64,000 bases of DNA from Phycisphaerae bacterium (GTDB taxonomy: Bacteria; Planctomycetota; Phycisphaerae; Sedimentisphaerales; Anaerobacaceae), in contig JAAYBV010000067.1 in the NCBI GenBank assembly GCA_012744475.1, positions 124,001-188,000 on the forward strand, given 5' to 3'. How positions within the stretch are numbered: the first letter of the stretch is position 1; every line of letters starts with the position of its first letter. Below are positions 26,316 through 49,777 of the stretch, one piece after another. The translations under genes and the position numbers were made by a program. The notes beneath the pieces are model-generated. The model did not search any database. It saw only the letters and a program-made list of their open reading frames with translations, and was not told the origin of the DNA.

Positions 26316-26579
26316 AATCACCCTCAGAAGGGAACCGCTATTGCCGCCAAATCGCCCGGCCGCCGGGCGCACACCAACTCCCCCATGCCCGTCGGAATTC
26401 AGCCATGGTGCTTTCGCCGCTCCGCCGATTGTGGCTTGTCACCATAAACACACCACCATTGTAGTGATTCGCCCCCCCAAAGTCAACGCCGCCCGCCGGT
26501 TCGTCGTGGCGTCGTCAGACGCTATTCCTCGCCATGGACACATGGCCCGTTCTGCGCTGCTCGCTTGGGCACGCCGCAG

Positions 26580-26760
26580 AAGCACGAATATCGAAGTCCG
26601 AATTCCGAAACAAGCCCGAATGACCCAGAATCCAAGCTCGAAACACGGAGGCCATCGCGTGCAACTGGGCCCTGCCCATGCAAAGCGAGGCGAATTTGGA
26701 GCATTTGGACTTCGTGCTTTGAATTTGTTTCGAGTTTCTTGCTTCGGATTTCGAGTTTGT
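26580..26760. repeat. Heptad-structured inverted-repeat element, copy 1
   Basis: Left arm gaatatc gaagtcc gaattcc gaaacaa...; right arm catttgg...atttgtttcgagtttcttgcttcggatttcgagttt. Confidence 0.7.
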
Positions 26761-27107: not shown

Positions 27108-27673
27108 CCCCGGCCGTTGCCGTTGCCGGCCGCTTCGAGAATCCCGATGATCCGCGAGACACTGCGCTCGCGTCCGAAATGCTGCTCGTAGTAGATGCGG
27201 GCGTTGCGGCCCATGCCGTGCTGTAGCGCGGGATTCGTCGCCAGCCGCCGCAGCACATCGGCCGCCTCCTCGACGTCGCCCGGCTCGATCACAAAGCCCG
27301 AGCCGCTCTCCCGCACGATGCGTCCCACCTCGCACTCGACAGGCCCAATGAACAGCGACGGCCGCCCCGCCGCCAGCGTGCTGTAGATCTTGCTCGGCAC
27401 CAGCAGGCCCTCGGTGCCCGGCTGCTGGCAGATCAGGTGAATGTCACCCCGCGCCAGCAGAGCCGACAGCTCCTCCAGCGGCACGGGCGGCCGAATCTCC
27501 GCATCCGCCAGCCGCAGCTCGGCAACCAGAGCGCGAACCGCCGCCAGACCCTTGCCGTCGCCGGCGATAAGCACCTTGAGGGCGGCCTGGCCGTTCAGCC
27601 GCGCCACAGCCCGCAGGGCCGTGCCGACGTCCTGCCCGAGGCCCACATTACCTGAATAGAGGAGGGTGGCCAC
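27056..27673 (-). pseudogene. C-terminal (nucleotide-sugar-binding) half of a GT4-type glycosyltransferase, separated from its N-terminal part
   Basis: VATLLYSGNVGLGQDVGTALRAV...VPSKIYSTLAAGRPSLFIGPVECEVGRIV...; no SD; last ~16 codons encoded by the repeat element. Confidence 0.7.
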
Positions 27674-27680
27674 CAGGGAG

Positions 27681-27716
27681 TGATGACTGATAATTGATGA
27701 TTGATGATTGATGATG
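27681..27716. repeat. Heptamer array (tgattga-type) in the glycosyltransferase linker
   Basis: tgatgactgataattgatgattgatgattgatgatg. Confidence 0.85.
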
Positions 27717-27721
27717 GGCCG

Positions 27722-27958
27722 CTACGAGCCAAGAGCCACCGGCTCCGGGCGCTTCGCCGGCGGCCGATCATGGACCGTGACACCCTCCCCGGGCGTCCAG
27801 TTGTGCACCGTGTGCAGCCGGCCGGCCTCGACCCCGGCCGCCGCCAGCCGCTGCGTCATCACCTCCCCCAGCGAGATCACCGCCTCGACATCTCGATACA
27901 GCCTCCGATTGAACCGCCGCAGCAGGCGGCACCTGTGCTGTTCAAACTGTGCTGGCAT
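27722..27958 (-). pseudogene. Fragment of the glycosyltransferase N-terminal half (end of first Rossmann domain), same frame as 27056..27673 but closed by TAG
   Basis: RRLYRDVEAVISLGEVMTQRLAAAGVEAGRLHTVHNWTPGEGVTVHDRPPAKRPEPVALGS*, closely matching the end of ORF 29038..29697. Confidence 0.8.
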
Positions 27959-28939: not shown

Positions 28940-29035
28940 AGTTGTGCGGATGTCCTGCCCGATGCCGATGTTGCCTGAATAGAGGAGGGTGGCCACTTGG
29001 GATTGATGATTGATGATTGAGAATTGATGATGGGC
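28940..29035 (-). pseudogene. Short remnant of the glycosyltransferase C-terminal half preceded by heptamer array
   Basis: Minus strand encodes VATLLYSGNIGIGQDIRTTV* directly after the array tgattgatgattgatgattgagaattgatgatg. Confidence 0.7.
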
Positions 29036-29037
29036 CG

Positions 29038-29697
29038 CTACGAGCCGAGCGCCACCGGCTCCGGGCGCTTCGCCGCCGGCCGATCATGGACCGTGACACC
29101 CTCCCAGGGCGTCCAGTTGTGCACCGTGTGCAGCCGCTCGGCCTCGACTCCGGCCGCCGCCAGCCGCTGCGTCATCACCTCCCCCAGCGAGATCACCGCC
29201 TCCGCATCCCGATACAGCCTTCGACTGATCCGGCCCAGCGCGCGGCACAACCGGCCCCGCCCGGCCAGCACGCCGTACGCGGCCGCAATCTCCGGATACA
29301 CGTCCATCACCCACAGCACGTTCCGCGTGCCCCGCATCTTGCTCAGCATCCACCCGATCAGCGCGATGAACGGCGGCGTCGTCAGCGAAAGACACACATC
29401 GGGCCTTGCCAGCCGCAGCGCCCGCCACGCCGCGCTGAAGTAGAACGAGACGTAGTCCGCCGCCCGGCCCGCCAGCCGCCTTCGCCCGAACCCCGTCGTC
29501 AGCACGCGATGGACGTGTACACCGTCGAGCACCTCGTCCGCCGCCGGCGTCAGCGACCCGCCCCCGTACCGGCGGCGACTACAGATCACGTGCACCTCGT
29601 GACCCCGCGCGACAAGCGCCTCGCCCACGTCCGCCAGCAACTGACCCGTCGCCGCCACGTCCGGCCGATAGAACTGATTCAGCAGCAAGATTCGCAT
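29038..29697 (-). pseudogene. N-terminal half of GT4-type glycosyltransferase, terminated at TAG before heptamer array
   Basis: MRILLLNQFYRPDVAATGQLLADVGEALVARGHEVHVICSRRRYGGG...VLWVMDVYPEIAAAYGVL; ends ALGS*. Confidence 0.75.
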
Positions 29698-29706
29698 AGA
29701 AGAACA

Positions 29707-29985
29707 GCTTTCAGCAGACAGTCTTCAGTTCACAGTTCTCGGCCGTCGGCCGCAGACGTATCTCGTATCTGGTATCTCGTATCTCGCATGCTCGTAGAAG
29801 GGTAGATGCGTAGAAGCGTAGATGGGTCATACTTCAAACTGGAAACTGACAACTGGCAACCGTCAACTCTCGTATCTCGTGAAGCGTGAAGCGTCAAACG
29901 TCAAACTGAAAACTGGCAACTGCCAACTCGGCCGCAGGCCGTAGCCATTCATCAATCGTCAATCATCAATAGTAAATCCCTGCGC
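29707..29985. repeat. Composite array of 7-8 bp repeats
   Basis: gtatctc x4, gtagaagN/gtagatgN, aactgnc runs, gaagcgt x2, atcaatc run; core cggccgcaggccg at 29929-29941. Confidence 0.85.
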
Positions 29986-30079: not shown

Positions 30080-31060
30080 CTACGCGATGAGGCGCTGCTC
30101 GCGCAGCCAACGGATCGTTTCTCTTACACCACTCTCCAGCGTGTAAGGCAAAGGGCCACAGAGCTTGTTTGTTGCAGCCATGGATACCCCGATAGTTGTA
30201 TCGGCCCTCATGTTTCCCAGCCGAAAGGACGTCATCGGTAGATTTCTGCAGCCGAGCTTCCGTAGACAGTCTCCGCCCCAGGCGGCGACTCTCATGATAC
30301 TATCGGGAATCGTTCGGGCAGGTCTGCCATGAAGCTGTACGGCAATCGAGTTCGCCCAGTCCCTTATCGTGCATGGTTCATAATCGGAGAGATAGAAGGG
30401 CTTCCCATGCACAGCCTCGCGCGGGGCTTCGAGCAGTCTCATGATCTGGAAGACTGTGTTGCCGACGTAGCCGTAGCTCTTCGGAGGATTCGCCCTGCCC
30501 GGATGGAAGTAGCGACCCTTCGCAACTGTCAAAAAGAAGGGCTTATACGGAATGCCGAACCACGGACCCCAAATGGACGTGGCCCGGCCGATGAGCCATT
30601 CGCATTTGAGTTTCCTGCTGCTTCGAATGATCTTCTCGCCATCCGCCTTGCTTTGACCGTACACGGTGTCGGGATTGTAGTCTTCCCAGGAACGAGGCTG
30701 GTAGCCCGTCCGGCAGACAAGCTTGGAGGACATGAACAGACAGCGTTCTACCGACTCGCATCCGGTAAGCCCGTCGATCAGGCACTGGACTCCAAGGAAA
30801 TTCACGTCATAGTCATTGAGAGAGGTTCCGTTGAAATCGGTCTTCGCCGCAAGATGGACAACATGTGTTGGAGCGAACTCCTTGAAGACTCGCGCCAGTG
30901 CCTTGGCCTCGCGCACATCAACAGACTCAAACACCGATGAATGCGCGGTGTTCTGCGGCTCCTTTATATCGATGCTCAGGACCACCATACCTTTGCCGAG
31001 CAAATGGCCGACAAGATTGGTGCCGATGAAGCCGGAGCCGCCGGTGACTAAGATTCGCAC
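30080..31060 (-). CDS. NAD-dependent epimerase/dehydratase (extended SDR)
   Basis: MRILVTGGSGFIGTNLVGHLLGKGMVVLSIDI...VYGQSK. Confidence 0.92.
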   Translation of the reverse strand: MRILVTGGSGFIGTNLVGHLLGKGMVVLSIDIKEPQNTAHSSVFESVDVREAKALARVFKEFAPTHVVHLAAKTDFNGTSLNDYDVNFLGVQCLIDGLTGCESVERCLFMSSKLVCRTGYQPRSWEDYNPDTVYGQSKADGEKIIRSSRKLKCEWLIGRATSIWGPWFGIPYKPFFLTVAKGRYFHPGRANPPKSYGYVGNTVFQIMRLLEAPREAVHGKPFYLSDYEPCTIRDWANSIAVQLHGRPARTIPDSIMRVAAWGGDCLRKLGCRNLPMTSFRLGNMRADTTIGVSMAATNKLCGPLPYTLESGVRETIRWLREQRLIA

Positions 31061-32196
31061 AAGAGATTCTCCTGCATATCACTTGGACGAACTCGGATCA
31101 TACTCTCAAATATCTCCCTGTAAGACTGCGCCATGATTTCGGGCCCCAGCCTCTCTCTCACGATCTCAGTCGCGATACGTGACTCACAGGGGTCGGCTGC
31201 TAGCCCCCGTTCTAATGCCCGCGCCAGACCCACCGCATCCTGTGTAGGGAACAGCACGACACCTGGGACCAATGAAGCAAGTTCCCTGTGTGCGCCTATG
31301 TCGCTCACAACACAAGGCAACCCACATGCCAAAGCCTCAATGACAGACAACGGGAGGCCCTCAAGCCACGATGCAGATACGTAGATATCTGCGGCTCGCA
31401 AGTACTTCTCCGCTTGCTTCGAGAACCCCACGAAGGTTATCCGTGGCGCGTTACCAGCGAGTTCCTCGCAGTAGCGCTTCGCAGGACCATCGCCGACTAT
31501 TACGAGGAACGCCTTGTCATGAAATCGACTCCGAAGAAAGCCCGCAATCACGGTAGCGACGTCCTTGCATTTGTCGACTCGCCCCATGAAGACAATGATG
31601 CTGCAATGCGCTGGGAGGCCCAGCTCCGCACGTAGGATTCGCTTCTCCTCTGGATCAGCCGGGCGGTACACGCCATAGTCTACGCAATTCCTGATTACGG
31701 CGATCTTCTCTTGGAGACGCTTGGGAGCAGACTGCTTCACAGTCTCCGAGCACACCACTATGTAATCCATGCGGCTCAGCGCGCGGCAGTGCAAGTACTC
31801 CATGATCCTGCCAAGCACGGGGCCGTGCCACGCGACATGCAAGCTATGGAACAACTCGTGGCGCGTGCACACTCGCATGATGCGGCAGGCGACCATCGAA
31901 GAGAGAACATCAGCCCTAAAGCCAGACGAGTGAATTACGTCGTATTGCGTGGCGTCCAAGTAGCTACGGAGGCGTGATGCCGCGAAGAAAAGCCCTTTGC
32001 CGCGGTTCATCGCAAGCGAATGGCACGCAACTCCTTGTTCGACGAACTCATTCCACAGGGACTCGGGGGGCTCAGGCGATAAAGTTAAGATCTCTGGTTC
32101 AAACGCTGTCCGATCCAGCCGTCCCAACAGAGTGCGAAGATGAATCGTAGGGCCTTCATTCGCAAGCGTTGAACACACATAGAGAATCCGTCGCAT
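31048..32196 (-). CDS. Glycosyltransferase family 4
   Basis: MRRILYVCSTLANEGPTIHLRTLLGRL...VFMGRVDKCKDVATVI...SWLEGLPLSVIEALACGLPCVVSDIGAHREL. Confidence 0.93.
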   Translation of the reverse strand: MRRILYVCSTLANEGPTIHLRTLLGRLDRTAFEPEILTLSPEPPESLWNEFVEQGVACHSLAMNRGKGLFFAASRLRSYLDATQYDVIHSSGFRADVLSSMVACRIMRVCTRHELFHSLHVAWHGPVLGRIMEYLHCRALSRMDYIVVCSETVKQSAPKRLQEKIAVIRNCVDYGVYRPADPEEKRILRAELGLPAHCSIIVFMGRVDKCKDVATVIAGFLRSRFHDKAFLVIVGDGPAKRYCEELAGNAPRITFVGFSKQAEKYLRAADIYVSASWLEGLPLSVIEALACGLPCVVSDIGAHRELASLVPGVVLFPTQDAVGLARALERGLAADPCESRIATEIVRERLGPEIMAQSYREIFESMIRVRPSDMQENLLCES

Positions 32197-32201
32197 AGGC
32201 G

Positions 32202-33323
32202 TCACTCCTCGTGTGCCAGCGCAACGGCTTCAATAAATGGCAATGCGTTGTTAGTCATTATGTTGTACCAGGAGTGGTCAGATACAGAGGATAGTATCTT
32301 TCCCGAATCGTACAGCCGTAACCTTTGCGCCAGCACACGCAATCCACTGCAGAATGCGTCTGGAGTGTCATCGATCAACACACCATTGTCATCACTGACT
32401 ATCACCGCGTTCTGCTTGGTCGCCGTGGCAATAACAGGCATACCCGCAAAGAAGTATTCATAGGTCTTCGTTGGCGGCTGACAATCATAGTATGGAGTCA
32501 TGGGTACATACGAGACGCCAACATTGCAGCATTCATAGTAGCTTGTGAGTCGTTCTCGCGGTACGTAACCAGGCAGTGCGATCCTATCGGTTAGGCCGAG
32601 TTCATGTACAAGCATTTGCAGTCGATGTCTTTCACCGTCTTCTGAATCTCCGACGAGGGTGAAATGCGCATCGGTCGAGGCCCCCTCTTCGCGGCAATAG
32701 ATAGCGAATCCCTTTATGGCTTCGGACAACCGACGATTCAGAAATGTTCCCACATACAGCAAACGCAGGCATGACATATCCCGAGTGAGGATGGGAATCG
32801 GATTAGCTCCTAGGGGACAGATATGTGTTCTCTCTCGGGGCAGACGGAGATAACGACGCATAGCGTCGCAGAGGACGCTGATTCTCCCAAACGCCCTTGC
32901 CTCAGCAGAAATCAGGAGATTGCGCACACCACGTCTCATCCAACTGCCTGAAACTGCGCCCGATCGAATGTCCAGAATGAAGCGTCTCCGTGCGTTTACA
33001 CACCGCAGGAGAGAACACATGGGGAAATAGTACAGGTAGACTATGTCATAGTCCTCCCGACAGGCACGAGCACACGCGTCAAGCCACTTCCAGATTCGAC
33101 ACAGGACGTGCGAGGAGCGATCGACCACGCTATGCCTCACTGCATGAGGCACGGTGTCACTCGCCCCGTCCATCGGGCCACGACCAAGTGAGATAACCGT
33201 CACGGCGTGCCTGCACCCTACGTGTTTGACCAGTTCAACTGCATCTGTTATGAAGCCAAATGGGCTGCAGCAGACAACTAGAATGTTGAGTGGCTGCTGT
33301 GTGTATGAATCGTGTGGATGCAT
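32202..33323 (-). CDS. Glycosyltransferase (GT4-like)
   Basis: ILVVCCSPFGFITDAVELVKHVGCRHAVTVISLG...RLLYVGTFLNRRLSEAIKGFA...PTKTYEYFFAGMPVIATAT. Confidence 0.85.
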   Translation of the reverse strand: MHPHDSYTQQPLNILVVCCSPFGFITDAVELVKHVGCRHAVTVISLGRGPMDGASDTVPHAVRHSVVDRSSHVLCRIWKWLDACARACREDYDIVYLYYFPMCSLLRCVNARRRFILDIRSGAVSGSWMRRGVRNLLISAEARAFGRISVLCDAMRRYLRLPRERTHICPLGANPIPILTRDMSCLRLLYVGTFLNRRLSEAIKGFAIYCREEGASTDAHFTLVGDSEDGERHRLQMLVHELGLTDRIALPGYVPRERLTSYYECCNVGVSYVPMTPYYDCQPPTKTYEYFFAGMPVIATATKQNAVIVSDDNGVLIDDTPDAFCSGLRVLAQRLRLYDSGKILSSVSDHSWYNIMTNNALPFIEAVALAHEE

Positions 33324-33325
33324 TG

Positions 33326-34825
33326 TTAAGATCCGCCTGCCAACGTAATCATCTGCCTCCGTCTATAGTGCCAATGTTGCCGCACCGGCACAGACATAGG
33401 CTCTCGACGAGATACTGACCCGGTTAACAGCCCGGCATAAGCCAGCAATGTAAGCGTTACCGGGTTGGCAGTCACGACTATGCCACTGTAGAAGAAGTAC
33501 ATATAGAACGTAAGAATGAACCCCAAGAGCACCCCAAAGTGGATTGCCCTCCATCGGCATGGCAGTGTCTCTATGCTCACCGCGCGCATCATATCCCGCA
33601 CCACGGCTCCGTAAGCGGCCAGGAACAGAACCATGCCGGGGACGCCTATGGAGACTACGTCCATAGACCATCCAGTAATCCCATACGCAATATGCAACGT
33701 AGAAAAGCCATATCCACCCCCCTCCTGCTCCCCTCTACTCTCACTAAACGCATTCGGCCCAAAGCCGAAGAGAATGCGCCAGATATCTGCCGATGATAAA
33801 AAACGCAATATCTTAATGCTTGTACTGGTGCGGCCCATTGTCCGCCCGTCGGACAACTCACCCCGTTCATACTCACTCGCAAATCGAAGGGCGTCCGTGA
33901 ATCTCTCAACCACTGAGGCGTGCGGATTCCCGGACGACAACCCATAGCTGCGATCCATTCCGTACAACCACAGTGGCAACGCGATAAGGGCACATATGGC
34001 CGCGTGCCTCAAGATGCGCCTGAGAGTATTGGCGCGCAGGTGCTCACTGCGCAGAAGATATATCAGCACACAGAGCAGGACGTGGCACGGAACAAGGAAG
34101 TAGATGGCACGTTTCCCGCTTGCATAACCCACAATGGTGAATGACAGGGCGATGAGCATGACCCACAGAGACTGCCGGATATAGAAATAGTAGCCCAACG
34201 CACCCCCAATGGCAAATAACGGAAACAATGTCGCCAACTCCCCACCGGAGACAGTCATTGTCCCTACGCGCCATTCGACCCTTCCAAATAAGGCGGCATG
34301 AAGCACAGACGCGCCGATCTGCATTAGAAATAGGGACACGACAAAGCCATTTATCATCTTCAGTTCACGTCCCTGCCACCCGGGTATCCGAAACACATGG
34401 TACAGTGCAAACCCATAGAACGTATAACGCGCATATTTGAATCCATCGATAGGGCTGCTCTCTGGAGAGCACATGCCTGCGAATAGGGACCAGAAAACAT
34501 AAGCCAGGGCCATACAAAATGCAACGGGAGGTCTATGCCGCCGCCACAGTCCAGCTATCACAAGTACTATCACAGCCTCGACAGCGAACCGCACAAGCAT
34601 AGACTCGTGCTCACCACTGCTGGCGGGACTACTGCCAAACACGTGTTCGGATACGCTTCCTCGCAAGAACAGCGTAAGAAAAAGGAGAACCAGAAGCGGC
34701 ACTCGCAGAGAATATTCTATCTTGCGCAAACGACTGGTAGGTCCTGTACCGCCGACGAAGCGTGGAGATCCGAATCTCCGCGCCCGTCCGTAGGAGTTCC
34801 CCTCTGTACGAGAATAGCTGATCAC
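33326..34825 (-). CDS. Polytopic membrane protein, O-antigen polymerase/ligase-like
   Basis: Multiple hydrophobic helices, large loop before C-terminal helices, located among glycosyltransferases. Confidence 0.7.
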   Translation of the reverse strand: MISYSRTEGNSYGRARRFGSPRFVGGTGPTSRLRKIEYSLRVPLLVLLFLTLFLRGSVSEHVFGSSPASSGEHESMLVRFAVEAVIVLVIAGLWRRHRPPVAFCMALAYVFWSLFAGMCSPESSPIDGFKYARYTFYGFALYHVFRIPGWQGRELKMINGFVVSLFLMQIGASVLHAALFGRVEWRVGTMTVSGGELATLFPLFAIGGALGYYFYIRQSLWVMLIALSFTIVGYASGKRAIYFLVPCHVLLCVLIYLLRSEHLRANTLRRILRHAAICALIALPLWLYGMDRSYGLSSGNPHASVVERFTDALRFASEYERGELSDGRTMGRTSTSIKILRFLSSADIWRILFGFGPNAFSESRGEQEGGGYGFSTLHIAYGITGWSMDVVSIGVPGMVLFLAAYGAVVRDMMRAVSIETLPCRWRAIHFGVLLGFILTFYMYFFYSGIVVTANPVTLTLLAYAGLLTGSVSRREPMSVPVRQHWHYRRRQMITLAGGS

Positions 34826-34839
34826 TGCGATGCCCCTTG

Positions 34840-35952
34840 CTACAGTGATAATGCCGCACTCCGGAACAACTCTGTCATCGCAGAAAGGTTAGCTAACGAG
34901 TGGTTCTCAAAAGCATACTTGCGTGCGGCCTCACCCATGGCATCCCGCAGCTGGGGGTCCTGAATTAGACGCCGTGTATCCATGCACAATCTGTCAAATG
35001 TGTGTGAGTGATATCCTAGGCCATACCGCGCGATGACGTCGTCGGGATCTACGTTCAGGCTAACCACGGGTACCCCACGCATCCAGGCTTGAATGAAGGT
35101 ATTTGAGAAACCCTCGTATTGGCTCGTACTGACAAGGATGTGGCTCTTCGCAAGGAGTGCGTTGACATCCGCCATACGCAATTCACCGCGATAATCAATC
35201 TGCGACGCGCGCGCAAGCATCTTTTCAACCGAGCGTTGGTAAATGCGGCCGCCAGCACGCCCGGCCATAATGAACGAGGCTTCCACGTGTTGGCACAATC
35301 TCGCTGCCAGTCGAATGAACACCTTGGGTTGCTTAGACGGCTTAATATTCGCAATCCAGAGCACCTTCACAGGCGAGCGCGCTCTTTGGATGTGCTCAGG
35401 TGGATAGGGATGCCAATTTGGAACAATGGCATCGCAGGATCGCTTGAAGTTCTGGCCCAGAAGCTTGTCCTGATAGTGAGCCTGTCCAACAATCACGGAA
35501 CTGTGGCAAATACCATAATGGAGCCATCGTCGTTCAACCAGGGTCTGAGGACTCCGCCACCATCGTATGATGCAAACCTTTTCGACATCGGGACTGCTAG
35601 CGATATGCCACACCATCTTGCACTTGTGTGACCTGCAGTATTCGGCCGCTATGCCCGTCCAAGCACATCCGTGTGTTTGGTATACGATATCGGGGCAAAT
35701 ACCATCTAAAGCCTTGATAACGCGTTGCCTGTACATGAGGGTATTTGTGCCTAGCCGCTCTGGCCATCTCATCCTCGCAATGGGAACCAAGTGTATTTCA
35801 GAGTCAGATTCAAAGGGGGCATGATTATCTATGAATATGTAATGTACGTCATGGCCAGATTCCTGCAGGTGTTTGGCAAGGAGATACGCACGATACTCCG
35901 CCCCGCCTACACGCTGCTCATAGTAGTTTGGTATCAAGAACGCGACTCTCAT
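34840..35952 (-). CDS. Glycosyltransferase family 4
   Basis: MRVAFLIPNYYEQRVGGAEYRAYLLAKHLQESGHDVHYIF...VLWIANIKPSKQPKVFIRLAARL...SQYEGFSNTFIQAWMRGVPVVSL. Confidence 0.92.
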   Translation of the reverse strand: MRVAFLIPNYYEQRVGGAEYRAYLLAKHLQESGHDVHYIFIDNHAPFESDSEIHLVPIARMRWPERLGTNTLMYRQRVIKALDGICPDIVYQTHGCAWTGIAAEYCRSHKCKMVWHIASSPDVEKVCIIRWWRSPQTLVERRWLHYGICHSSVIVGQAHYQDKLLGQNFKRSCDAIVPNWHPYPPEHIQRARSPVKVLWIANIKPSKQPKVFIRLAARLCQHVEASFIMAGRAGGRIYQRSVEKMLARASQIDYRGELRMADVNALLAKSHILVSTSQYEGFSNTFIQAWMRGVPVVSLNVDPDDVIARYGLGYHSHTFDRLCMDTRRLIQDPQLRDAMGEAARKYAFENHSLANLSAMTELFRSAALSL

Positions 35953-37013
35953 ATGCCCTCCGCTGAACGCACTGCAATCTGTGCAAGCATGTCTTCCAGT
36001 ATCGCGTCCTGCGGCCACATCTTACCATCGTGCCACTTGAGATTTCCGTCCCAATGGCCGGGGCACTTCGCGACTTGTCCGTTGGCGGGAAATGCATAAC
36101 TCATTTCGATCAGGTGGGGCCCTCGCGACTCGTCTCTGATGAAGTCGTATGCGGTGCTCTGGAGGTTCAGACGGCGGCTAACTTCATAAGCGAGCCTGAT
36201 GAACTCAGTGTCAATCTTCTTGCGGTCGAGTATTGTAGAGCCGCTGCCTGAGGCTCGAAAATCATTCCTTCGCACCTCCCGCTGAAAGGCGAAGGCACGA
36301 TTACCGATTACGACAACTCGCGTGTCGTGCTTGTTGCCGGGGATAAAATCCTGAAAATACACATAACCTCTTTCTCGGCCCATGCGCCTCTCGATGTCTC
36401 CTGGAATCACACATCGGAACAAGGCCCCTATCAAACCCCTCGCAGTGTGGTGGGTGCGACAGTGATGGAACGCAGAAATGCTATCTCGGAGCGAAGCGCG
36501 CCGGTTGATAGGACTGAACCCGGCACCGAATGCTTTCCGGATCAGGCGGGCTGCCTCAGATCGTGTCCTTACTAATAACACGTTGCTGGAGCCCGCCCCT
36601 CCCCGCAATTTGAAGACTTTCGGGTAATCGGTTGCTCCTGCCCACTCCATTGCCTCCTCTTCATCATAGAAGACGTAAGATGGCACTAGCGGAGCGCCAA
36701 TTGCCTCTAGGAGATACTTCTGTCCAACCTTGTCGTCAAAGTGCCAACAAGTGCGGCTGTTTGGGAATACGAGCTTACCAGCAGCCTCCAATGAGTAGGT
36801 CAGCTGTCTGGCAAACAGTCTCGCCCGACAGTCGTAATGATTCCAATGCCAGAGGAACGCAGCGCATGACCTGAGATGCTGGATAATATCGCTGTCGTAG
36901 CAATTCACCAGATCATACCGGATGCTATTCTCAGTGCAGTACTCAATCCATCGGTCGGAAAAGCTGCCGGGCCGGTGGTGAATGGCGAGTGTTGTGCATT
37001 TTGACCTCTTCAT
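35949..37013 (-). CDS. ATP-grasp domain protein (RimK-like)
   Basis: DKVGQKYLLEAIGAPLVPSYVFYDEEEAMEWAGATDYPKVFKLRGGAGSSNVLLV...YVYFQDFIPGNKHDTRVVVIGNRAFAFQREVR; 4-nt overlap with the next gene. Confidence 0.8.
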   Translation of the reverse strand: MKRSKCTTLAIHHRPGSFSDRWIEYCTENSIRYDLVNCYDSDIIQHLRSCAAFLWHWNHYDCRARLFARQLTYSLEAAGKLVFPNSRTCWHFDDKVGQKYLLEAIGAPLVPSYVFYDEEEAMEWAGATDYPKVFKLRGGAGSSNVLLVRTRSEAARLIRKAFGAGFSPINRRASLRDSISAFHHCRTHHTARGLIGALFRCVIPGDIERRMGRERGYVYFQDFIPGNKHDTRVVVIGNRAFAFQREVRRNDFRASGSGSTILDRKKIDTEFIRLAYEVSRRLNLQSTAYDFIRDESRGPHLIEMSYAFPANGQVAKCPGHWDGNLKWHDGKMWPQDAILEDMLAQIAVRSAEGI

Positions 37014-37120
37014 GTGTGCCACACGCAGAACTCTTTCGGGATATGTCATATGGGAGTGATTAATGGGGTGATGGAGCCCATCATATCTCTACGATTACAC
37101 TCAATGAAGGCGCCAGCGAG

Positions 37121-38584
37121 TCACCTTTGCCGGATGCCGCTTGCCTCAACAGGTTTCCTTTGCTGCAAGAGCAAACTACCAATCCATAGGATGAGGGCAC
37201 TGTTTAGAAGGAAACCTAGAGCGGAAAACACGGCAACCGTTGACAGCGCCGACCAATAGAGTCCACCAACAAGTAGTATGATCGTACGCGAGAACAGTAC
37301 GATACATTCATAGAGAAACAAATTTCTTTGCTGCCGGAGTATCCTGGCGAACAGGTTAGCTGGCACATTGCAGAATCCGGCATACATCCACAGTGTCAGC
37401 CACCGCGCAAACATCCCAGCCTCCCACCAGTCTTCTCCAAAACCCCACGAGAAGAGCTCCGGGGCCCAGATGAATACAACAATACTGGGCAACAAAGCCA
37501 CCGCCATTAGGCCACCAGTCGTCTTGATGAACAATTGAAGTAGACCGCCTCCCTGGTTATGTGTCTCGCTGGCTTTCTGAAAAAGCACCTGCCGGAGGGC
37601 AGTCAGAATGAAGTCCATTGGCACATGTATGAGCTTCATGCCAAAGGCATAAGCTCCGGCAACGGCAATGCCATGGAAGTGAGCCAGCATCAGCACTGGT
37701 AGTCCCTGCGAGACAGCGTTCATTGTATTCTGCGTTGCGCTATAGACAGGGAAGTCACGGTACACTCTCGCCTGGCTGGCTATCCGTCTCCAGTTCAAGG
37801 ATTCCTTCAGCAGGGCTTTGTCCGCACATAGGACCCTGCGAGCCAGGCTCATACTGGCGATCCCATTGGCAGCAACGGAACTGACGATCAGCCCGGGACT
37901 GCCTTGATTCAGAATGCCAAACACAATTTTCAGCATGTTGGAGGAGCCAGCTCCAAGGATTTGTGAAGATGCAGTCGTCGTGAATGCCTTTCTCCTGACA
38001 CACCAAGCCTGGAACGACCGATTGATCCCCGCCACAAAGATGCCCAGCGGAAGGAACCAAAGCAGCCATGCCGACTGGGGCGCTTTCAACAGCCCGAGTA
38101 GCCAATCCGAGCGCAGATACGCCACCAGCAAAGCTACCAAGGTGACAATACAAACAGATAGAAGGGAGGCCCCAAATACGTTCGCGGCATCTTCCTCGTT
38201 TCGAGGCAGCATGAGGGCTTGCGAGTACTGCAGCGTCGCGAATGCGGCCACAACCAACAGGATGGAATTGAAGGAACCCAACACGCCGAAATCGGAGGGG
38301 GTGAACAGACGGCTGATCACTGGCGCGATGGCAACGCCAACTGCCTGGGCGACAACCGTGCCCCCCAGAACGACAGACATGTTCCGGAAGAACTGGCTGC
38401 GGCCAAAATACCGGATGAGTGCCGAACCCCGCAGTCTTGGCCAAAGCCCGCATTCGGAGGTTTCGGGGAGGTCCACTGCCTCAAGTGAACTCACTTGTTC
38501 CGCGTCAGCGGTCAGGAGGGCAGCCTCGTCTGGAATGCTGTGAGCGAACCGCGCTTTCGTCTTCTCAGGTCGGGTCCCGAACAT
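37121..38584 (-). CDS. Oligosaccharide flippase / polysaccharide biosynthesis protein (Wzx-like)
   Basis: MSVVLGGTVVAQAVGVAIAPVISRLFTPSDFGVLGSFNSILLVVAAFATLQYSQALMLPRNEEDAANV; multiple TM helices. Confidence 0.9.
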   Translation of the reverse strand: MFGTRPEKTKARFAHSIPDEAALLTADAEQVSSLEAVDLPETSECGLWPRLRGSALIRYFGRSQFFRNMSVVLGGTVVAQAVGVAIAPVISRLFTPSDFGVLGSFNSILLVVAAFATLQYSQALMLPRNEEDAANVFGASLLSVCIVTLVALLVAYLRSDWLLGLLKAPQSAWLLWFLPLGIFVAGINRSFQAWCVRRKAFTTTASSQILGAGSSNMLKIVFGILNQGSPGLIVSSVAANGIASMSLARRVLCADKALLKESLNWRRIASQARVYRDFPVYSATQNTMNAVSQGLPVLMLAHFHGIAVAGAYAFGMKLIHVPMDFILTALRQVLFQKASETHNQGGGLLQLFIKTTGGLMAVALLPSIVVFIWAPELFSWGFGEDWWEAGMFARWLTLWMYAGFCNVPANLFARILRQQRNLFLYECIVLFSRTIILLVGGLYWSALSTVAVFSALGFLLNSALILWIGSLLLQQRKPVEASGIRQR

Positions 38585-38672: not shown

Positions 38673-39050
38673 GGCAGAATGATTGATTATTGACGATTGA
38701 TGAATGGAAGTTCGCGGTTGGCAGTTATCGGTTCTCAGTTCGCGGTTGGCAGTTATCGGCTGTCAGTTGGCGGCAGTAGCTTTTGCGGCCTGCGGCCGGG
38801 CGAATTGACTATTGATGAATGGAAGTTCGCGGTTCTCAGTTCTCAGTTTCAAGTTCGACGCTTCACGCTTCACGGGCGACGGGCGACGGCGTTAAAGAGG
38901 CCCGGCGGGCCGGCTCTGACGGGGCCGGCCCGGGGGCGACTGGTTACTGACAACCGTCAACTGTTCCCTGTGATCTGACCGCTGTCAACTGTTCCCTGAC
39001 AAGTGCTCCCTTCGCACTTTTAGCTTCCCACTTGTCAGTTCTCACTGCGT
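38673..39050. repeat. Composite heptamer array between flippase and FN3 gene
   Basis: tgattgattattgacgattgatga; (ggcagtt/ctcagtt)n; cttcacgcttcacg; core gcggcctgcggccg at 38785-38798. Confidence 0.85.
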
Positions 39051-39052
39051 TC

Positions 39053-39661
39053 TTACAGCACGACGACCACCGTATTGCTCGGCTCTCCTTCGCCAGCCTT
39101 GTTGACGCTGATGACGCGGTACTCGAACTCCTTGCCGCGAGGCTGGTCGATCAGCGTGACGGTGGTCTCGACGGCGGTGGCGACGTCGAGCCAGGGCCCG
39201 GCGGGCCGTTCGCGCCGCATGATGCGATAGGCGCTGGGCTTGCCGCCGTCGACCGGGGCCTTCCAGGCCAGCTCGACCGTCGCTTCCTCCTGCCGCACGG
39301 CTGCCAGCAGTCGGGCCTGGCCCGGCGGGGCCAGCGGCGTGGGCGCTTTGCGCGGCGACCAGCCGATGAGCTGCAACTGCTCGCTGTCGGCGCCGACCGT
39401 CGTCTCGGCGTAGCGGATGTTCTTCTTCATGAGCCCGACGAGCTGGCCGAGGATCATGTCCTTGGTCGACGTCGCCTCCTGGGCCGCCGTCTGCTTGGTC
39501 AGAAGGCTGGCCCGGGCCTGGGCATAGGCGTCGCGCACGTTCGTGACGTACTCGACTGTCACCGGCGGCGCGGGGAAGACGTCCTCGTGCTCGGTCAGTC
39601 CGGTGATCATCTCATCGGCCAGTGTGGCCACATCCGATTCCGTGGTGGGGAATCTTGCCAT
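39053..39661 (-). CDS. Fibronectin type III domain protein
   Basis: C-terminal PGQARLLAAVRQEEATVELAWKAPVDGGKPSAYRIMRRERPAGPW...FEYRVISVNKAGEGEPSNTVVVVL; SD aaggagac. Confidence 0.8.
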   Translation of the reverse strand: MARFPTTESDVATLADEMITGLTEHEDVFPAPPVTVEYVTNVRDAYAQARASLLTKQTAAQEATSTKDMILGQLVGLMKKNIRYAETTVGADSEQLQLIGWSPRKAPTPLAPPGQARLLAAVRQEEATVELAWKAPVDGGKPSAYRIMRRERPAGPWLDVATAVETTVTLIDQPRGKEFEYRVISVNKAGEGEPSNTVVVVL

Positions 39662-39870
39662 ATACAGTCTCCTTGCTCAGGCCGCCGGCGAAGGGCCGAC
39701 GGCGGTTGCCTGCGCAACGCGGCACATCCATGCCTGGCGCTGCGCGCATTGGACCATGGGCAAGCGCTCGCTCAAACTGGGCCCGCACGTCTCATGGCGC
39801 CATCTATCGGCCGGGCAAGGGGGAGACTTCAGCAGAAAGGGAAAAAATGTCACGGGGCGATTCGCTATTG

Positions 39871-40250
39871 ATTGTTGATGAATGGCGGTTGGCAGTTTTC
39901 AGTTGGCAGTTGGCAGTTGTCAGTTACCCGTTGGCAGTTGTCAGTTGACGGCTTCACGCGTCACGGCCTCCAGCCTCCAGCCAAGTTTCAAGCGATGAGT
40001 CTGAAGTTTCACGCTTCTACGCATCCACGCTTCTACGTGTGCGGCCTGCGGCCGGGTGTTAAGTGACAAGTTCTGAGTTTCAAGTCTGAAGTGACAAGTT
40101 TGAAGTTCTACGCTTCACGTTTCACGAGATACGAGATACGAGATACGAGCAAAGCCTGTCCCTTCGGCGAGGCTCAGGGCAAGCTCCGAGCGAAGTCGAG
40201 GGAAGCGACGAGACGCGAGCGACGAGACACGAGTCACGAATCACGGTCTA
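39871..40250. repeat. Composite heptamer array downstream of the ASN-heptad ORF
   Basis: (ggcagtt/gtcagtt)n, cttcacg, cttctacgcatccacgcttctacg, gcggcctgcggccg at 40041-40054, acgagatacgagatacgag. Confidence 0.85.
40155..40203. repeat. REP-like imperfect palindrome
   Basis: ctgtcccttcggcgaggctcagggcaagctccgagcgaagtcgaggga. Confidence 0.6.
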
Positions 40251-40603
40251 AATCGCGTTTTCGGGGCTGAGAACACGGTTCGGGGCTGTTCGGGTATCGC
40301 ATTCGAAGCTTCATCCTTCGTGTTTGAAGCTTCATCCATCAAATTGGACGCTTCATCTGTCATGGTTGCAGCTTCGTCTGTGGCATTCGAAGCCTCAACT
40401 CTCGCATTCGAAGCGTCATCTGTCTTGTTTGAAGCCTCATCCATTCCATTCGAAGCGTCAACCTTCGCATTCGAAGCTTTGTTCCAGACATTCGAAGCTT
40501 GGTTTCGGGCATTCGAGACTTGATCCAAGGCCGATGGAGCTTCGAGTATCGTATGCCGCGCGTGCCCGGCGGCGTTCGGAACCGGCTCCGGGGTATCGGG
40601 CAC
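40241..40603 (-). CDS. Hypothetical heptapeptide-repeat protein (ASNxxDE)n, 35 nt downstream of MNT gene
   Basis: ...ASNVWNK ASNAKVD ASNGMDE ASNKTDD ASNARVE ASNATDE AATMTDE ASNLMDE ASNTKDE ASNAIPE; GTG start, no strong SD. Confidence 0.45.
   Translation of the reverse strand: MPDTPEPVPNAAGHARHTILEAPSALDQVSNARNQASNVWNKASNAKVDASNGMDEASNKTDDASNARVEASNATDEAATMTDEASNLMDEASNTKDEASNAIPEQPRTVFSAPKTRFRP
40301..40531. repeat. 21-bp tandem repeat, 11 units without indels
   Basis: attcgaagcttcatccttcgt / gtttgaagcttcatccatcaa / attggacgcttcatctgtcat / ... exactly 21 bp each. Confidence 0.95.
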
Positions 40604-40638: not shown

Positions 40639-40953
40639 CTATACCAGCCGAACGCCGCTGCGCGCGATTTCACTGGCGAGCGGATCGTTCGGACCGAAGC
40701 GACTTGGTGTGAACGGCTGAGGTTCGATGCGGTCATCGATCGCGACGGCCCACTTCATCAATGCGAGGCGCTCGGCAAAAAGGTCCTCGGAGAAATCCGG
40801 GGATACTACGGCCACGTCGATGTCGCTCCAGGGACGGGCCGCCCCCGTCGTCTGCGAGCCGTATACATACGCCGCATCGACGCGCAGTTTCTGACGCACA
40901 ACGGCCAGAAAACGCTCGACGCTGGCTAAGATATCCGGTGCGATTTGAGCCAT
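40639..40953 (-). CDS. MNT-type nucleotidyltransferase (antitoxin-like)
   Basis: AAYVYGSQTTGAARPWSDIDVAVVSPDF: GSxxxG...SDID motif. Confidence 0.9.
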   Translation of the reverse strand: MAQIAPDILASVERFLAVVRQKLRVDAAYVYGSQTTGAARPWSDIDVAVVSPDFSEDLFAERLALMKWAVAIDDRIEPQPFTPSRFGPNDPLASEIARSGVRLV

Positions 40954-41333
40954 TCGAGTATCTCCCGGACAAGCGACATCTGCTCGGCCGCGTATTCCGC
41001 CGTGCACTGTCGCCGAAACTCACGCTTCAGGTCAGGGTACCGCGCCTCAATGTTGAACGCCGTGATCCGAAGGAGCGCTTCGGTCTGTCGCTCGTCGAGT
41101 TCGATTCCCACAGCGTTGGCAAGCCTCACCAGGTTGTGAATGGGTGGAGCGTGCCGGCCCTGACGGATCGCATGCAAACCCTTCAGCTCCTTCTCTATCG
41201 CCAGATGGGCGAAGAACAGGGCATACGAGTAGTCCGCCTTCTCCATCAGGTGACCGGCTACGGTCAGGGCTTCAGTCGCCTCGGCGAACCAGTACCGAGC
41301 AACGGCTTCGGCCTCGAATTGCTCCTTATCCAT
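40926..41333 (-). CDS. HEPN domain protein (toxin-like partner of MNT)
   Basis: YWFAEATEALTVAGHLMEKADYSYALFFAHLAIEKELKGLHAIRQGRHAPPIHNLVRLA; 28-nt overlap with the MNT gene. Confidence 0.9.
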   Translation of the reverse strand: MDKEQFEAEAVARYWFAEATEALTVAGHLMEKADYSYALFFAHLAIEKELKGLHAIRQGRHAPPIHNLVRLANAVGIELDERQTEALLRITAFNIEARYPDLKREFRRQCTAEYAAEQMSLVREILEWLKSHRIS

Positions 41334-41368
41334 CCCGGGGGACGCTCCGACTTCCATCCAACAAACCG

Positions 41369-42925
41369 TCAAATCGGCGGGGTCAGGGCCTTCGCCGACT
41401 TTGTATCTTCCTTCGGACCTGCGGTGTCATGATACCGGCCTGGGGACCGATCCGTCAACCGCTGAACCGGCGTCGAATGGCCGCCGGGCGGCTGGGGGCT
41501 GTGTTCGTCGATGAGGCGGCCGAAGAGGGTGGCGCGGCGGTTGGCGGCTTCGAGTGAGCCGTCGGCCCAGATGGCGATCTCGAACCGTCGCGGCGGATCG
41601 CCGTTGCTGGCCGCCAGCGGGATCGTCACCGTCACCAGGCGGGACATGCCCGGCTTCGGCTCCGAGGCCCGCCAGATCTCCTCCTCGATCCGCCCATCCG
41701 GGTATGTCGTCTTGAGCGAGACCCAGGCGAAGTCCATGCGGCCGGCCGCCTCGCAGACCGCGTCCCACCATTGACTCGCATCACGCACCCGGTCGAAACG
41801 CAACTCCAGGTACTCGAACGTCGCCCGCTCCTGCCGGCAGCACTGGTTCAGCACGTGCTTTTCCTTCAGGCCCGCCAGCGTCTGGCGCAGGCGCACCGCG
41901 CCGACCACGCGAAAGACCAGCACCACCAGCAGCAGGATGCATACAAAGACGATCAGTGCGCTGATGTCCCGGCAGACCATCATGAACAGGCCCAGGCCGG
42001 TGAACAGGACCGTCAGAAGGTAGATCGCCAGCACCGCGTGACGCTGGCGAAGGCCCATGTCGAGCAGCCGATGGTGGAAATGGCTGCGATCCGGGGCAAA
42101 CAGGCTGCGTCGTTCGAGGAACCGCCGCAGCATGCTGAACAGCGTGTCGAAGATCGGGATTCCCAGCGCCAGCGCCGGCAGCGCCAGGCCCACGATCGCC
42201 GAGGACTTGGTCATGCACATCACGCTGGAGGCCGCGATGGTGTAGCCCAGGAACAGGCTGCCGCAGTCGCCCATGAAGACCTTGGCGGGATTGAAGTTGA
42301 AAACGAGGAAGCCCGAGAGGCTGCCAACCAGGGCCAGCGCGAGGATCGCCATGATTGTGTTGCCGCCGTGGATGGCCAGGACCGCGATCACGCCGCAGGC
42401 GATCGCCGAGATGCCCGCCGCCAGGCCGTCCAGACCATCGCTGAGATTGACCGCGTTGGTCAGGCCTACCACCCACAGCACGGTCAGCACACAGCCGGCG
42501 TGACCAAGGTGCAGCGGCAGATCGCTGGTCAGACCGATGGCCTCGATCCGAATGCCAGCGGCGCACAGGCCGACCGCCGCCAGCACCTCGGCGGCGAACT
42601 TGATGCGGGCGGGCAACCCTCGCAGGTCGTCCACCAGCCCCACCAGGAAGATGAAGCTCGCCGTACCCAGCAGCATCGTCATTTGCAGCCACCGGGCGCG
42701 GAAGGCCTCGCCGATGACGTTGTCGATGCACAGGACCGCGACGATCAGGCTCATGGCCGCGACGAAGATCGCGACGCCGCCGATGCGTGGGATCGGACGC
42801 TCGTGGATCGTGCGCACACCCGGCCGGTCCACCGCGCCGATCCGGGGAGCGATCCAGATCACAATCGGCGTGGCGATCAGCGCCACGAGGACCGAACCGA
42901 AATAGACAGCGACATAGGTGGTCAT
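41369..42925 (-). CDS. MraY/WecA-family glycosyl-1-phosphate transferase with ~170-aa C-terminal extension
   Basis: VDRPGVRTIHERPIPRIGGVAIF; TNAVNLSDGLDGLAAG; NFNPAKVFMGDCGSLFLGY; DRSHFHHRLLDMGL. Confidence 0.95.
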   Translation of the reverse strand: MTTYVAVYFGSVLVALIATPIVIWIAPRIGAVDRPGVRTIHERPIPRIGGVAIFVAAMSLIVAVLCIDNVIGEAFRARWLQMTMLLGTASFIFLVGLVDDLRGLPARIKFAAEVLAAVGLCAAGIRIEAIGLTSDLPLHLGHAGCVLTVLWVVGLTNAVNLSDGLDGLAAGISAIACGVIAVLAIHGGNTIMAILALALVGSLSGFLVFNFNPAKVFMGDCGSLFLGYTIAASSVMCMTKSSAIVGLALPALALGIPIFDTLFSMLRRFLERRSLFAPDRSHFHHRLLDMGLRQRHAVLAIYLLTVLFTGLGLFMMVCRDISALIVFVCILLLVVLVFRVVGAVRLRQTLAGLKEKHVLNQCCRQERATFEYLELRFDRVRDASQWWDAVCEAAGRMDFAWVSLKTTYPDGRIEEEIWRASEPKPGMSRLVTVTIPLAASNGDPPRRFEIAIWADGSLEAANRRATLFGRLIDEHSPQPPGGHSTPVQRLTDRSPGRYHDTAGPKEDTKSAKALTPPI

Positions 42926-42982
42926 GGGAAGTTGACAGTTGACAGTTGGCAGTTACCAGTTACCAGTTACCAGTTGACGGTT
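42926..42982. repeat. Heptamer array (cagttNN) directly 5' of the WecA-like start codon
   Basis: gggaagttgacagttgacagttggcagttaccagttaccagttaccagttgacggttgac. Confidence 0.9.
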
Positions 42983-42992
42983 GACGGCGCTG

Positions 42993-43150
42993 CAAATCCG
43001 AAATTCGAATGTCGAAGCACGAAACAAACACGAAAGCTTAGAGCCCCAAACTCGAATCCCGGCGCGCCGGGACGGCCGGCAGTTTGAGACATTTGGATTT
43101 GTGTCATTGGAATTTGTTTCGTATTTCGGATTTCGTGCTTCGTGTTTCAA
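42993..43150. repeat. Heptad-structured inverted-repeat element, copy 3
   Basis: caaatcc gaaattc gaatgtc gaagcac gaaacaa ... aatttgt ttcgtat ttcggat ttcgtgc ttcgtgt ttcaa. Confidence 0.8.
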
Positions 43151-49405: not shown

Positions 49406-49777
49406 CTACTGCCACCACCAGCCCGACCAGATCGGCGGTCGAGGTACCCAGTATGGCGGTCCCGGCACCCAATACGGCGGCCGAGGCAGCCAGTACGGCG
49501 GGCCCGGTGTCCAATATGGCGGCCACGGCGGCTTGCACGGGCTGCGCGGCCACCACCAGTCCGGGCAGTGGACCTTGCCATAGCCACCGCCGCCCAGCGC
49601 AACCATGTTTGTCGCCAAGGCCTGCTGAAGCCCGATCGTCGTCGTGGGGCTTGCGACATACGATCCCGGAGCCGCGTCACCCGGGGTCACCAGCAAGACG
49701 AACAACAACAGCACCGCCCCAAACGTCAGCAACCTGGCAAACGCGGTTCTTCGCCTTGTCGTTCCTTTCGCGTCCAT
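49406..49777 (-). CDS. Small secreted Pro/Trp/Tyr-rich repeat protein (PPYWxPx)n
   Basis: MDAKGTTRRRTAFARLLTFGAVLLLFVLLVTPGDAAPGSYV signal peptide; PPYWTPG PPYWLPR PPYWVPG PPYWVPR PPIWSGWWWQ*. Confidence 0.7.
   Translation of the reverse strand: MDAKGTTRRRTAFARLLTFGAVLLLFVLLVTPGDAAPGSYVASPTTTIGLQQALATNMVALGGGGYGKVHCPDWWWPRSPCKPPWPPYWTPGPPYWLPRPPYWVPGPPYWVPRPPIWSGWWWQ

What the first reader, a model, noticed from the sequence alone, without database searches (positions are those of the whole stretch)
38673..40250. Modular composite arrays of several heptamer families around a GCGGCCTGCGGCCG core
Arrays at 29707-29985, 38673-39050 and 39871-40250 mix the same modules: tgattga/atcaatc, (NNcagtt)n or its complement, cttcacg, gtatctc/acgagat, and the palindromic core gcggcctgcggccg (38785, 40041; reverse complement at 29929). 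Order and orientation vary. A few runs have an 8-bp period (gtagaagN). The same vocabulary recurring in different combinations implies a generating mechanism rather than independent microsatellites.
Basis: seen in the sequence. Interest (0 to 1): 0.7.

Follow-up and report, generated by a model that had tools for sequence, protein, structure and literature searches.

The report
Composite seven-base repeat arrays between genes
This planctomycete genome carries many patchwork stretches between genes built from related seven-letter DNA words; they grow and shrink a whole word at a time, persist between species, recur in viral contigs, and belong to a widespread but poorly understood repeat class whose strict seven-base step is unexplained.

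Summary
Heterogeneous 7-nt-periodic arrays lie at 29707-29985, 38673-39050 and 39865-40252. In 1.53 Mb of this genome 7 is the only such non-coding period (39 arrays; other periods that are neither 3n nor 7n: 0-2 each). The "core" is itself a heptamer pair, GCGGCCT-GCGGCCG. Contrary to the finding, internal order is conserved (TTGAT, CAGTT, CTTCACG, ACGAGAT) in nearly every composite array read; mainly whole-array orientation varies.

In a congeneric genome the orthologous spacers hold arrays of the same vocabulary and polarity. Indels inside homologous array arms are 7, 14 or 21 nt; those outside are 5, 10, 11 or 19. No RVT_1 reverse transcriptase was found, so RT templating is unsupported. 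Best explanation: heptamer repeats inherited at fixed spacers, turned over unit-wise by slippage or recombination, with inverted and dispersed copies, enriched at GC discontinuities (here flanking a swapped polysaccharide cassette). Similar arrays abound in viral contigs.

This extends heptameric repeats known in Xanthomonas, Nostoc and Beggiatoaceae. New points: composite order, a 148-bp CGAANNN quasi-palindrome, cross-species unit-wise indels. Why seven, and any function, stay open.

The parts
29707..29985 (-). Array 1: composite heptamer array; read on the minus strand TTGAT, core, CAGTT, CTTCACG, ACGAGAT, then CAGTT, CTTCTACG, ACGAGAT again, ending in inverted CAGTT words
38673..39050 (+). 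Array 2: composite heptamer array (TTGAT, CAGTT, core, CAGTT, CTTCACG, GC-rich palindrome, inverted AACTG words); folds better than shuffles (z -4.45)
39865..40252 (+). Array 3: composite heptamer array (TTGAT, CAGTT, CTTCACG, CTTCTACG, core, AGTNNNA words, CTTCACG, ACGAGAT, ACGAGAC); no excess folding (z +1.2)
38785..38798 (+). GCGGCCTGCGGCCG, a pair of heptamers GCGGCCT-GCGGCCG
40041..40054 (+). GCGGCCTGCGGCCG, second exact copy
27667..27738 (+). TGATGAT-family heptamer array
28984..29038 (+). TGATGAT/TGATTGA heptamer array
42920..42993 (-). CAGTTSN heptamer array; reads (AACTGNN)n on the sense strand, ending about 3 nt before the start codon of the WecA-like gene 41369-42925; the G004-C5 copy has a shorter array at the same place
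42994..43148 (+). Copy of the dispersed ~148-bp quasi-palindrome with (CGAANNN)n arms; a homologous copy lies at the same place in G004-C5
26956..27103 (-). Second copy of the (CGAANNN)n quasi-palindrome
26579..26758 (.). Third, longer copy of the (CGAANNN)n quasi-palindrome
30080..38584 (-). Low-GC (0.52-0.56 by gene) polysaccharide gene cassette bounded by arrays 1 and 2; the homologous G004 array borders an unlike cassette

Best explanation
The arrays are heterogeneous heptameric simple-sequence repeats. Several word families have a near-constant 4-5-nt core plus 2-3 free bases (CAGTT+SN, CGAA+NNN, TTGAT+NN), beside more uniform words (ACGAGAT, CTTCACG). They sit in intergenic DNA and are inherited at the same spacers across species. 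SHOWN here: homologous arrays differ by whole heptamers, in blocks of 7, 14 or 21 nt; the period is 7 almost exclusively; several arrays carry inverted copies of their own words around a non-repetitive, often GC-rich centre; composite arrays at different loci share one word order. INFERRED: growth and loss come from misalignment at replication or recombination, held in register by the 4-5-nt core, so that core mutations drop out of propagation while the free bases drift; inverted arms come from occasional strand switching (quasi-palindrome formation); the shared order reflects dispersal of ancestral composite segments within the lineage by ectopic recombination or cassette exchange, which would also explain their excess at GC breakpoints. 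No host function is required, though arrays directly upstream of start codons may have been co-opted.
For: Period 7 is the only non-coding period in three genomes. In nine homologous permease spacers of two species, gaps in the repeat arms are 7, 14 or 21 nt while gaps in the non-repetitive centre are 5, 10, 11 or 19 nt. The array before the WecA-like gene differs by 14 nt between G000 and G004-C5 by my count of the sequences printed. Arrays persist at orthologous spacers with the same words and polarity. Core v free columns in 221 CAGTT units and the arm alignment of the CGAANNN element. Shared word order. GC-step excess. No RVT_1.
Against: Column-specific conservation (99% for G, 98% for both T, against a free last base) is also what selection for a binding site would give; the core-filter step is my inference. 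Slippage alone does not explain a word order shared by separate loci. Why 7 and not 6 or 8 is not explained. Several loci are paralogous permease spacers, so they are not independent. No population-level data were available.
Confidence: 0.55

Rival explanations
1. Selected binding arrays: the 4-5-nt cores at 7-nt spacing are recognition sites for an RNA- or ssDNA-binding protein that tunes translation or mRNA stability of the neighbouring genes; slippage supplies raw material and selection keeps the core.
For: Core columns are far more conserved than the free ones. AACTG arrays end about 3-17 nt before start codons in permease and WecA-like genes, as do composites in viral contigs (9-20 nt). 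TAACTGA repeats of Beggiatoaceae lie just upstream of start codons and were proposed as binding sites (PMC4679880). Arrays persist at orthologous spacers.
Against: Many word families with unrelated cores coexist in one genome; arrays lie in spacers of every gene orientation; most long composites are not next to a start codon; word choice changes between lineages.
Confidence: 0.22
2. Dispersed mobile elements: the composites and the 148-bp (CGAANNN)n quasi-palindromes are non-autonomous, MITE-like or REP-like elements moved by a transposase.
For: The quasi-palindrome has defined ends and 23 copies in 1.93 Mb; it is present upstream of WecA in G000 and G004-C5 but not in G004-C109 or G002; it occurs in several genera of the family.
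Against: No target-site duplication was visible by eye. The only Y1 transposase match lies beside a different palindrome (GGCAAGCANTGCTTGCC). Simple heptamer arrays have no fixed ends. Arms do not co-vary within a copy.
Confidence: 0.12
3. Structured RNA elements: inverted words form hairpins that act as terminators or mRNA stabilisers, and selection for pairing keeps the arrays.
For: Array spacers fold better than other spacers (mean z -2.1 v -1.1, p=0.0016); array 2 has z -4.45; paired CAGTT arms come in the order CAGTT then AACTG.
Against: Arrays 1 and 3 fold no better than shuffles. Arms of one quasi-palindrome are less complementary than arms of different copies (0.60 v 0.65). No Rfam match at the arrays.
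Confidence: 0.07
4. A templating enzyme (reverse transcriptase with an RNA that carries the words, like DRT10 or telomerase) writes the arrays.
For: A fixed 7-nt unit with a shared vocabulary and shared word order. Bacterial enzymes that make tandem-repeat DNA from a noncoding RNA exist (DRT10, PMC12632851).
Against: No RVT_1 match in the 99.6%-complete genome (a very divergent RT could be missed). Homologous arrays differ by whole units. One genome uses many words and other lineages use others, which a single template would not supply.
Confidence: 0.03

Closest known systems
GGGAATC / (GGGANTN)n repeats of Xanthomonas and GGGGA(C/T)T repeats of Nostoc (Rehm et al. 2015, PMC4692102)
   Same: Intergenic heptamers with fixed positions and free positions, about 90% intergenic in Xanthomonas, frequent close inverted pairs (70-75 cases), sites conserved between species with differing length.
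   Different: One G-rich word per genome there; here several AT-richer words are joined in ordered composites, and no G-quadruplex motif is involved.
TAACTGA direct repeats of marine Beggiatoaceae, Cyanobacteria and some Bacteroidetes (MacGregor 2015, PMC4679880)
   Same: The same core on the other strand (TAACTGA = TCAGTTA), 7-nt unit, intergenic, several directly upstream of start codons.
   Different: There one exact word with 2-6 copies and few variants; here the core is CAGTT with free bases, mixed with other words, and often inverted.
STRR heptanucleotide repeats of heterocystous cyanobacteria (mentioned in PMC4692102 for Calothrix; otherwise from memory)
   Same: Tandem heptamers, several words per genome, in spacers.
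   Different: Words differ; ordered composites are not described in what I read.
REP/RAYT palindromes and MITEs (REP families: PMC3733652; MITEs from memory)
   Same: The 148-bp (CGAANNN)n element is a dispersed, mostly intergenic quasi-palindrome.
   Different: 7-nt periodic arms, no visible target duplication, no matching transposase; this genome's Y1 transposase has its own, different palindrome.
DRT10 / telomerase tandem-repeat synthesis (PMC12632851)
   Same: An enzymatic way to make short tandem repeats exists in bacteria.
   Different: No RVT_1 reverse transcriptase was found here.

Membership tests
Intergenic heptameric simple-sequence repeats of bacteria | Tandem unit of 7 nt, enriched over other periods | tested here: met
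   39 arrays at period 7, 0-2 at periods that are neither 3n nor 7n
Intergenic heptameric simple-sequence repeats of bacteria | Mostly intergenic | tested here: met
   29 of 39 arrays in the ~10% called intergenic
Intergenic heptameric simple-sequence repeats of bacteria | Length varies by whole units between homologous sites | tested here: met
   Arm gaps 7, 14, 21 nt; 14 nt before the WecA-like gene
Intergenic heptameric simple-sequence repeats of bacteria | Measured instability (slippage) in growing cells | not testable with these tools
   Needs strains or passages
Beggiatoaceae-type TAACTGA repeats | Exact TAACTGA unit, related heptamers rare as repeats | tested here: not met
   Core CAGTT with two free bases; many other words
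Mobile element (MITE or REP) | Target-site duplication or cognate transposase | tested here: not met
   No duplication seen by eye in 23 copies; the one Y1 transposase has a different palindrome
Mobile element (MITE or REP) | Dispersed copies with defined ends | tested here: met
   148-bp (CGAANNN)n element only, 23 copies; not the simple arrays
Structured RNA element | Compensatory changes between arms | tested here: not met
   Within-copy arm identity 0.60 v 0.65 between copies
RT-templated repeat | Reverse transcriptase in the genome | tested here: not met
   No PF00078 match; the family rings in 3 control genomes

The most novel reading that the evidence does not exclude
Heptamer arrays across bacteria and their phages are one class of non-coding sequence propagated by an undescribed 7-nt copying activity (a polymerase or repair step with a 7-nt register that needs a 4-5-nt core). 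Lineage-specific vocabularies then spread as ordered composite segments, some carried by phages, and serve as recombination joints at the edges of gene cassettes.
Probability: 0.12. Interest if true: 0.85.

Novelty: new variant of a known kind. Interest (0 to 1): 0.5.

Why it matters
Heptameric repeats have been noticed in several bacterial groups, but the reason for seven, and for a constant core with free bases, is unknown. This genome and its congeners offer homologous arrays of different length at the same spacers, several vocabularies side by side, a conserved word order and no RVT_1 reverse transcriptase, which makes the origin testable by comparing strains. If arrays act as joints at the edges of exchanged surface-polysaccharide cassettes, they would also help explain cassette turnover.

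Tried and rejected
RT templating: no RVT_1. REP/RAYT: the transposase's own palindrome differs. Structured RNA: no Rfam match at the arrays, uneven folding, no arm covariation. A phylum-wide vocabulary: TTCACGAGATACGAG is in 1 of 392 other Planctomycetota, and that hit is coding; ACGAGAT runs are in 2 of 301 Chloroflexota genomes while the reversed-word control is in 6. So words are largely lineage-specific, and reversed-word controls are not clean negatives, because they form heptamer arrays themselves. Composite scan of GTDB genomes: 5 hits, no more than I would expect by chance (about 15), of which 3 are true composites on reading: L120 (same genus as the window), L119 (Anaerolineales) and L123 (Nitrospirota).

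Full report
WHAT IS THERE. The three arrays are real and as described, apart from one mismatch in the 29929 core. A strict autocorrelation scan of the window finds six arrays of period 7, one of period 8 and none of periods 4-6 or 9-13. The window is G000 C46:124001-188000 of a 5.75-Mb, 99.6%-complete assembly. Over 1.53 Mb of it, period 7 gives 39 arrays, 29 of them in the ~10% that a rough gene caller leaves as intergenic. Periods that are neither multiples of 3 nor of 7 give 0 to 2 each, and order-2 Markov sequence gives 0 at period 7. The congener G004 gives 14 arrays in 0.40 Mb, and a genome of another genus of the family gives 5 in 0.40 Mb, again with no rival period.

VOCABULARY. Perfect 7-nt dimers in intergenic DNA number 82, while runs of at least 7 matches at lags 5, 6, 8, 10 and 11 number 9, 10, 26, 15 and 24. 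In 42 runs of the CAGTT family (221 units) the columns are C 92%, A 80% (G 18%), G 99%, T 98%, T 98%, then G or C 90%, then any base, so the word is CAGTTSN; runs were chosen for the CAGTT core, so only the contrast with the two free columns is informative. The gcggcctgcggccg core is two heptamers. In four of its other genomic sites (C19, C27, C39, C102) it lies at the centre of a ~148-bp quasi-palindrome whose arms are (CGAANNN)n heptamers; 23 copies are in 1.93 Mb of the two genomes. The two arms of a copy are less alike (0.60) than arms of different copies (0.65), so hairpin pairing is not being maintained.

ORDER. The finding says order and orientation vary. On one strand, the composite arrays with two or more of the families TTGAT, CAGTT, CTTCACG and ACGAGAT read in that order: three in the window, one each on C118 and C6, two in G004. 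Array 1 runs through CAGTT-CTTCACG-ACGAGAT twice. In the G001 array (same genus) CAGTT precedes ACGAGAT, but CTTCTACG follows it, so the rule is strong rather than absolute. Whole arrays lie in either orientation and often end with inverted words. TTCACGAGATACGAG occurs 7 times in this genome, 0 for the reversed control, and once, in coding DNA, in 392 other Planctomycetota. So the composites share ancestry within the lineage, or share a generator.

EVOLUTION. In G004 the orthologue of the 202-aa fn3 gene (39053-39661; 71% identity) also has arrays on both sides, with the same words and polarity but different detail. Upstream of the WecA-like gene, G000 and G004-C5 both carry a CGAANNN element plus an AACTG array; from the sequences I count the AACTG stretch as shorter by exactly 14 nt in G004, while the closer gene copy G004-C109 has neither. 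In nine homologous permease spacers of the two species, gaps in the repeat arms are 7, 14 or 21 nt (the 7 being part of a 21-nt alignment gap) and gaps in the non-repetitive centre are 5, 10, 11 or 19 nt. A 14-nt gain is shared by a G000 and a G004 spacer. This is direct evidence of unit-wise gain and loss at otherwise conserved sites.

CONTEXT. Arrays 1 and 2 bound a low-GC cassette (30.1-38.6 kb; genes of GC 0.52-0.56: epimerase, glycosyltransferases, ATP-grasp, Wzx-like flippase), with most flanking DNA at 0.62-0.67. In G004 the orthologous array likewise borders DNA of GC 0.50-0.55 whose genes do not match, though its far edge has no array. Across both genomes, array spacers have larger GC steps than other spacers (median 0.031 v 0.014, p=5e-5; p=0.002 without this locus; p=0.02 also without C6). 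Array spacers fold somewhat better than others (mean z -2.1 v -1.1, p=0.0016), but arrays 1 and 3 do not.

WIDER DISTRIBUTION. GTCAT was picked after similar words were seen in L256, so it is not a neutral control. Within the CAGTT loci, other arrays are again mostly of period 7 (166, against 22 for period 6 and 19 for period 8), with many words, some inverted. Some viral contigs carry a CTTCACG-ACGAGAT composite 9-20 nt before an ATG. A Nitrospirota and an Anaerolineales contig carry composites with similar words. The phenomenon is thus general; the vocabulary is mostly lineage-specific, with some words recurring.

MECHANISM. No reverse transcriptase of the RVT_1 family is found, and homologous arrays differ by whole units, so a templating enzyme is unnecessary. 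The most economical model is unit-wise misalignment at replication or recombination, in a 7-nt register held by a 4-5-nt core, with occasional strand switching that makes inverted arms, and dispersal of composite segments by ectopic recombination. The steps of 7 are shown; the agent, the reason for 7, and the dispersal step are inferred. Selected protein or RNA binding remains a live rival, since cores are conserved and several arrays abut start codons, as with TAACTGA repeats (PMC4679880).

KNOWN KIND. Heterogeneous intergenic heptamers with constant and free positions, inverted pairs and conserved sites are described for Xanthomonas, and G-rich heptamers for Nostoc (PMC4692102); the CAGTT core on its other strand is described for Beggiatoaceae (PMC4679880). 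What is added here is the ordered multi-word composite, the 148-bp CGAANNN element, the inter-species 7n indels, the GC-breakpoint excess and the presence in viral contigs.

LIMITS. The assembly is an unnamed draft. Its genus is that of 'Planctomycetota bacterium AS06rmzACSIP_229', because G001 and that record's genome give identical match coordinates. Gene calls are a script of mine. Several array loci are paralogous permease spacers and are not independent. Viral sequences were chosen because they hold one array.

Noticed in passing
40241-40603 (-), repeat 40297-40516: A 120-aa reading frame with a 21-nt (7-residue) repeat (DEASNxx), next to array 3; G004 C5 has a similar repeat near 16640-16890. 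Not matched by Pfam.
   Followed up: partly
40639-41007 and 40926-41372 (-): Adjacent nucleotidyltransferase (NTP_transf_2) and HEPN-domain genes, the arrangement of MNT/HEPN toxin-antitoxin pairs.
   Followed up: no
L234 (G000 C22:1728-1952): A single Y1 transposase gene flanked by GGCAAGCANTGCTTGCC palindromes, a REP/RAYT-like pair unrelated to the heptamers.
   Followed up: partly
G000 C3, C8, C15 and G004 C158: Tandem runs of MacB/FtsX-like permease genes with about 2.6-kb spacing whose spacers hold CAGTT...AACTG arrays (permease identity from my reading of the sequence, not searched).
   Followed up: partly
L256 and other viral contigs (L244, L246, L247, L257): Viral contigs with heptamer composites 9-20 nt upstream of an ATG; L256 has five period-7 arrays of different words in 13 kb.
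   Followed up: partly
Chloroflexota genomes G138, G147, G182, G206, G214, G385: The reversed control word TAGAGCA x3 occurs 12 to 80 times per genome: another heptamer vocabulary of high copy number.
   Followed up: no
49433-49524: A 42-bp (2 x 21) tandem repeat, 82% matches.
   Followed up: no
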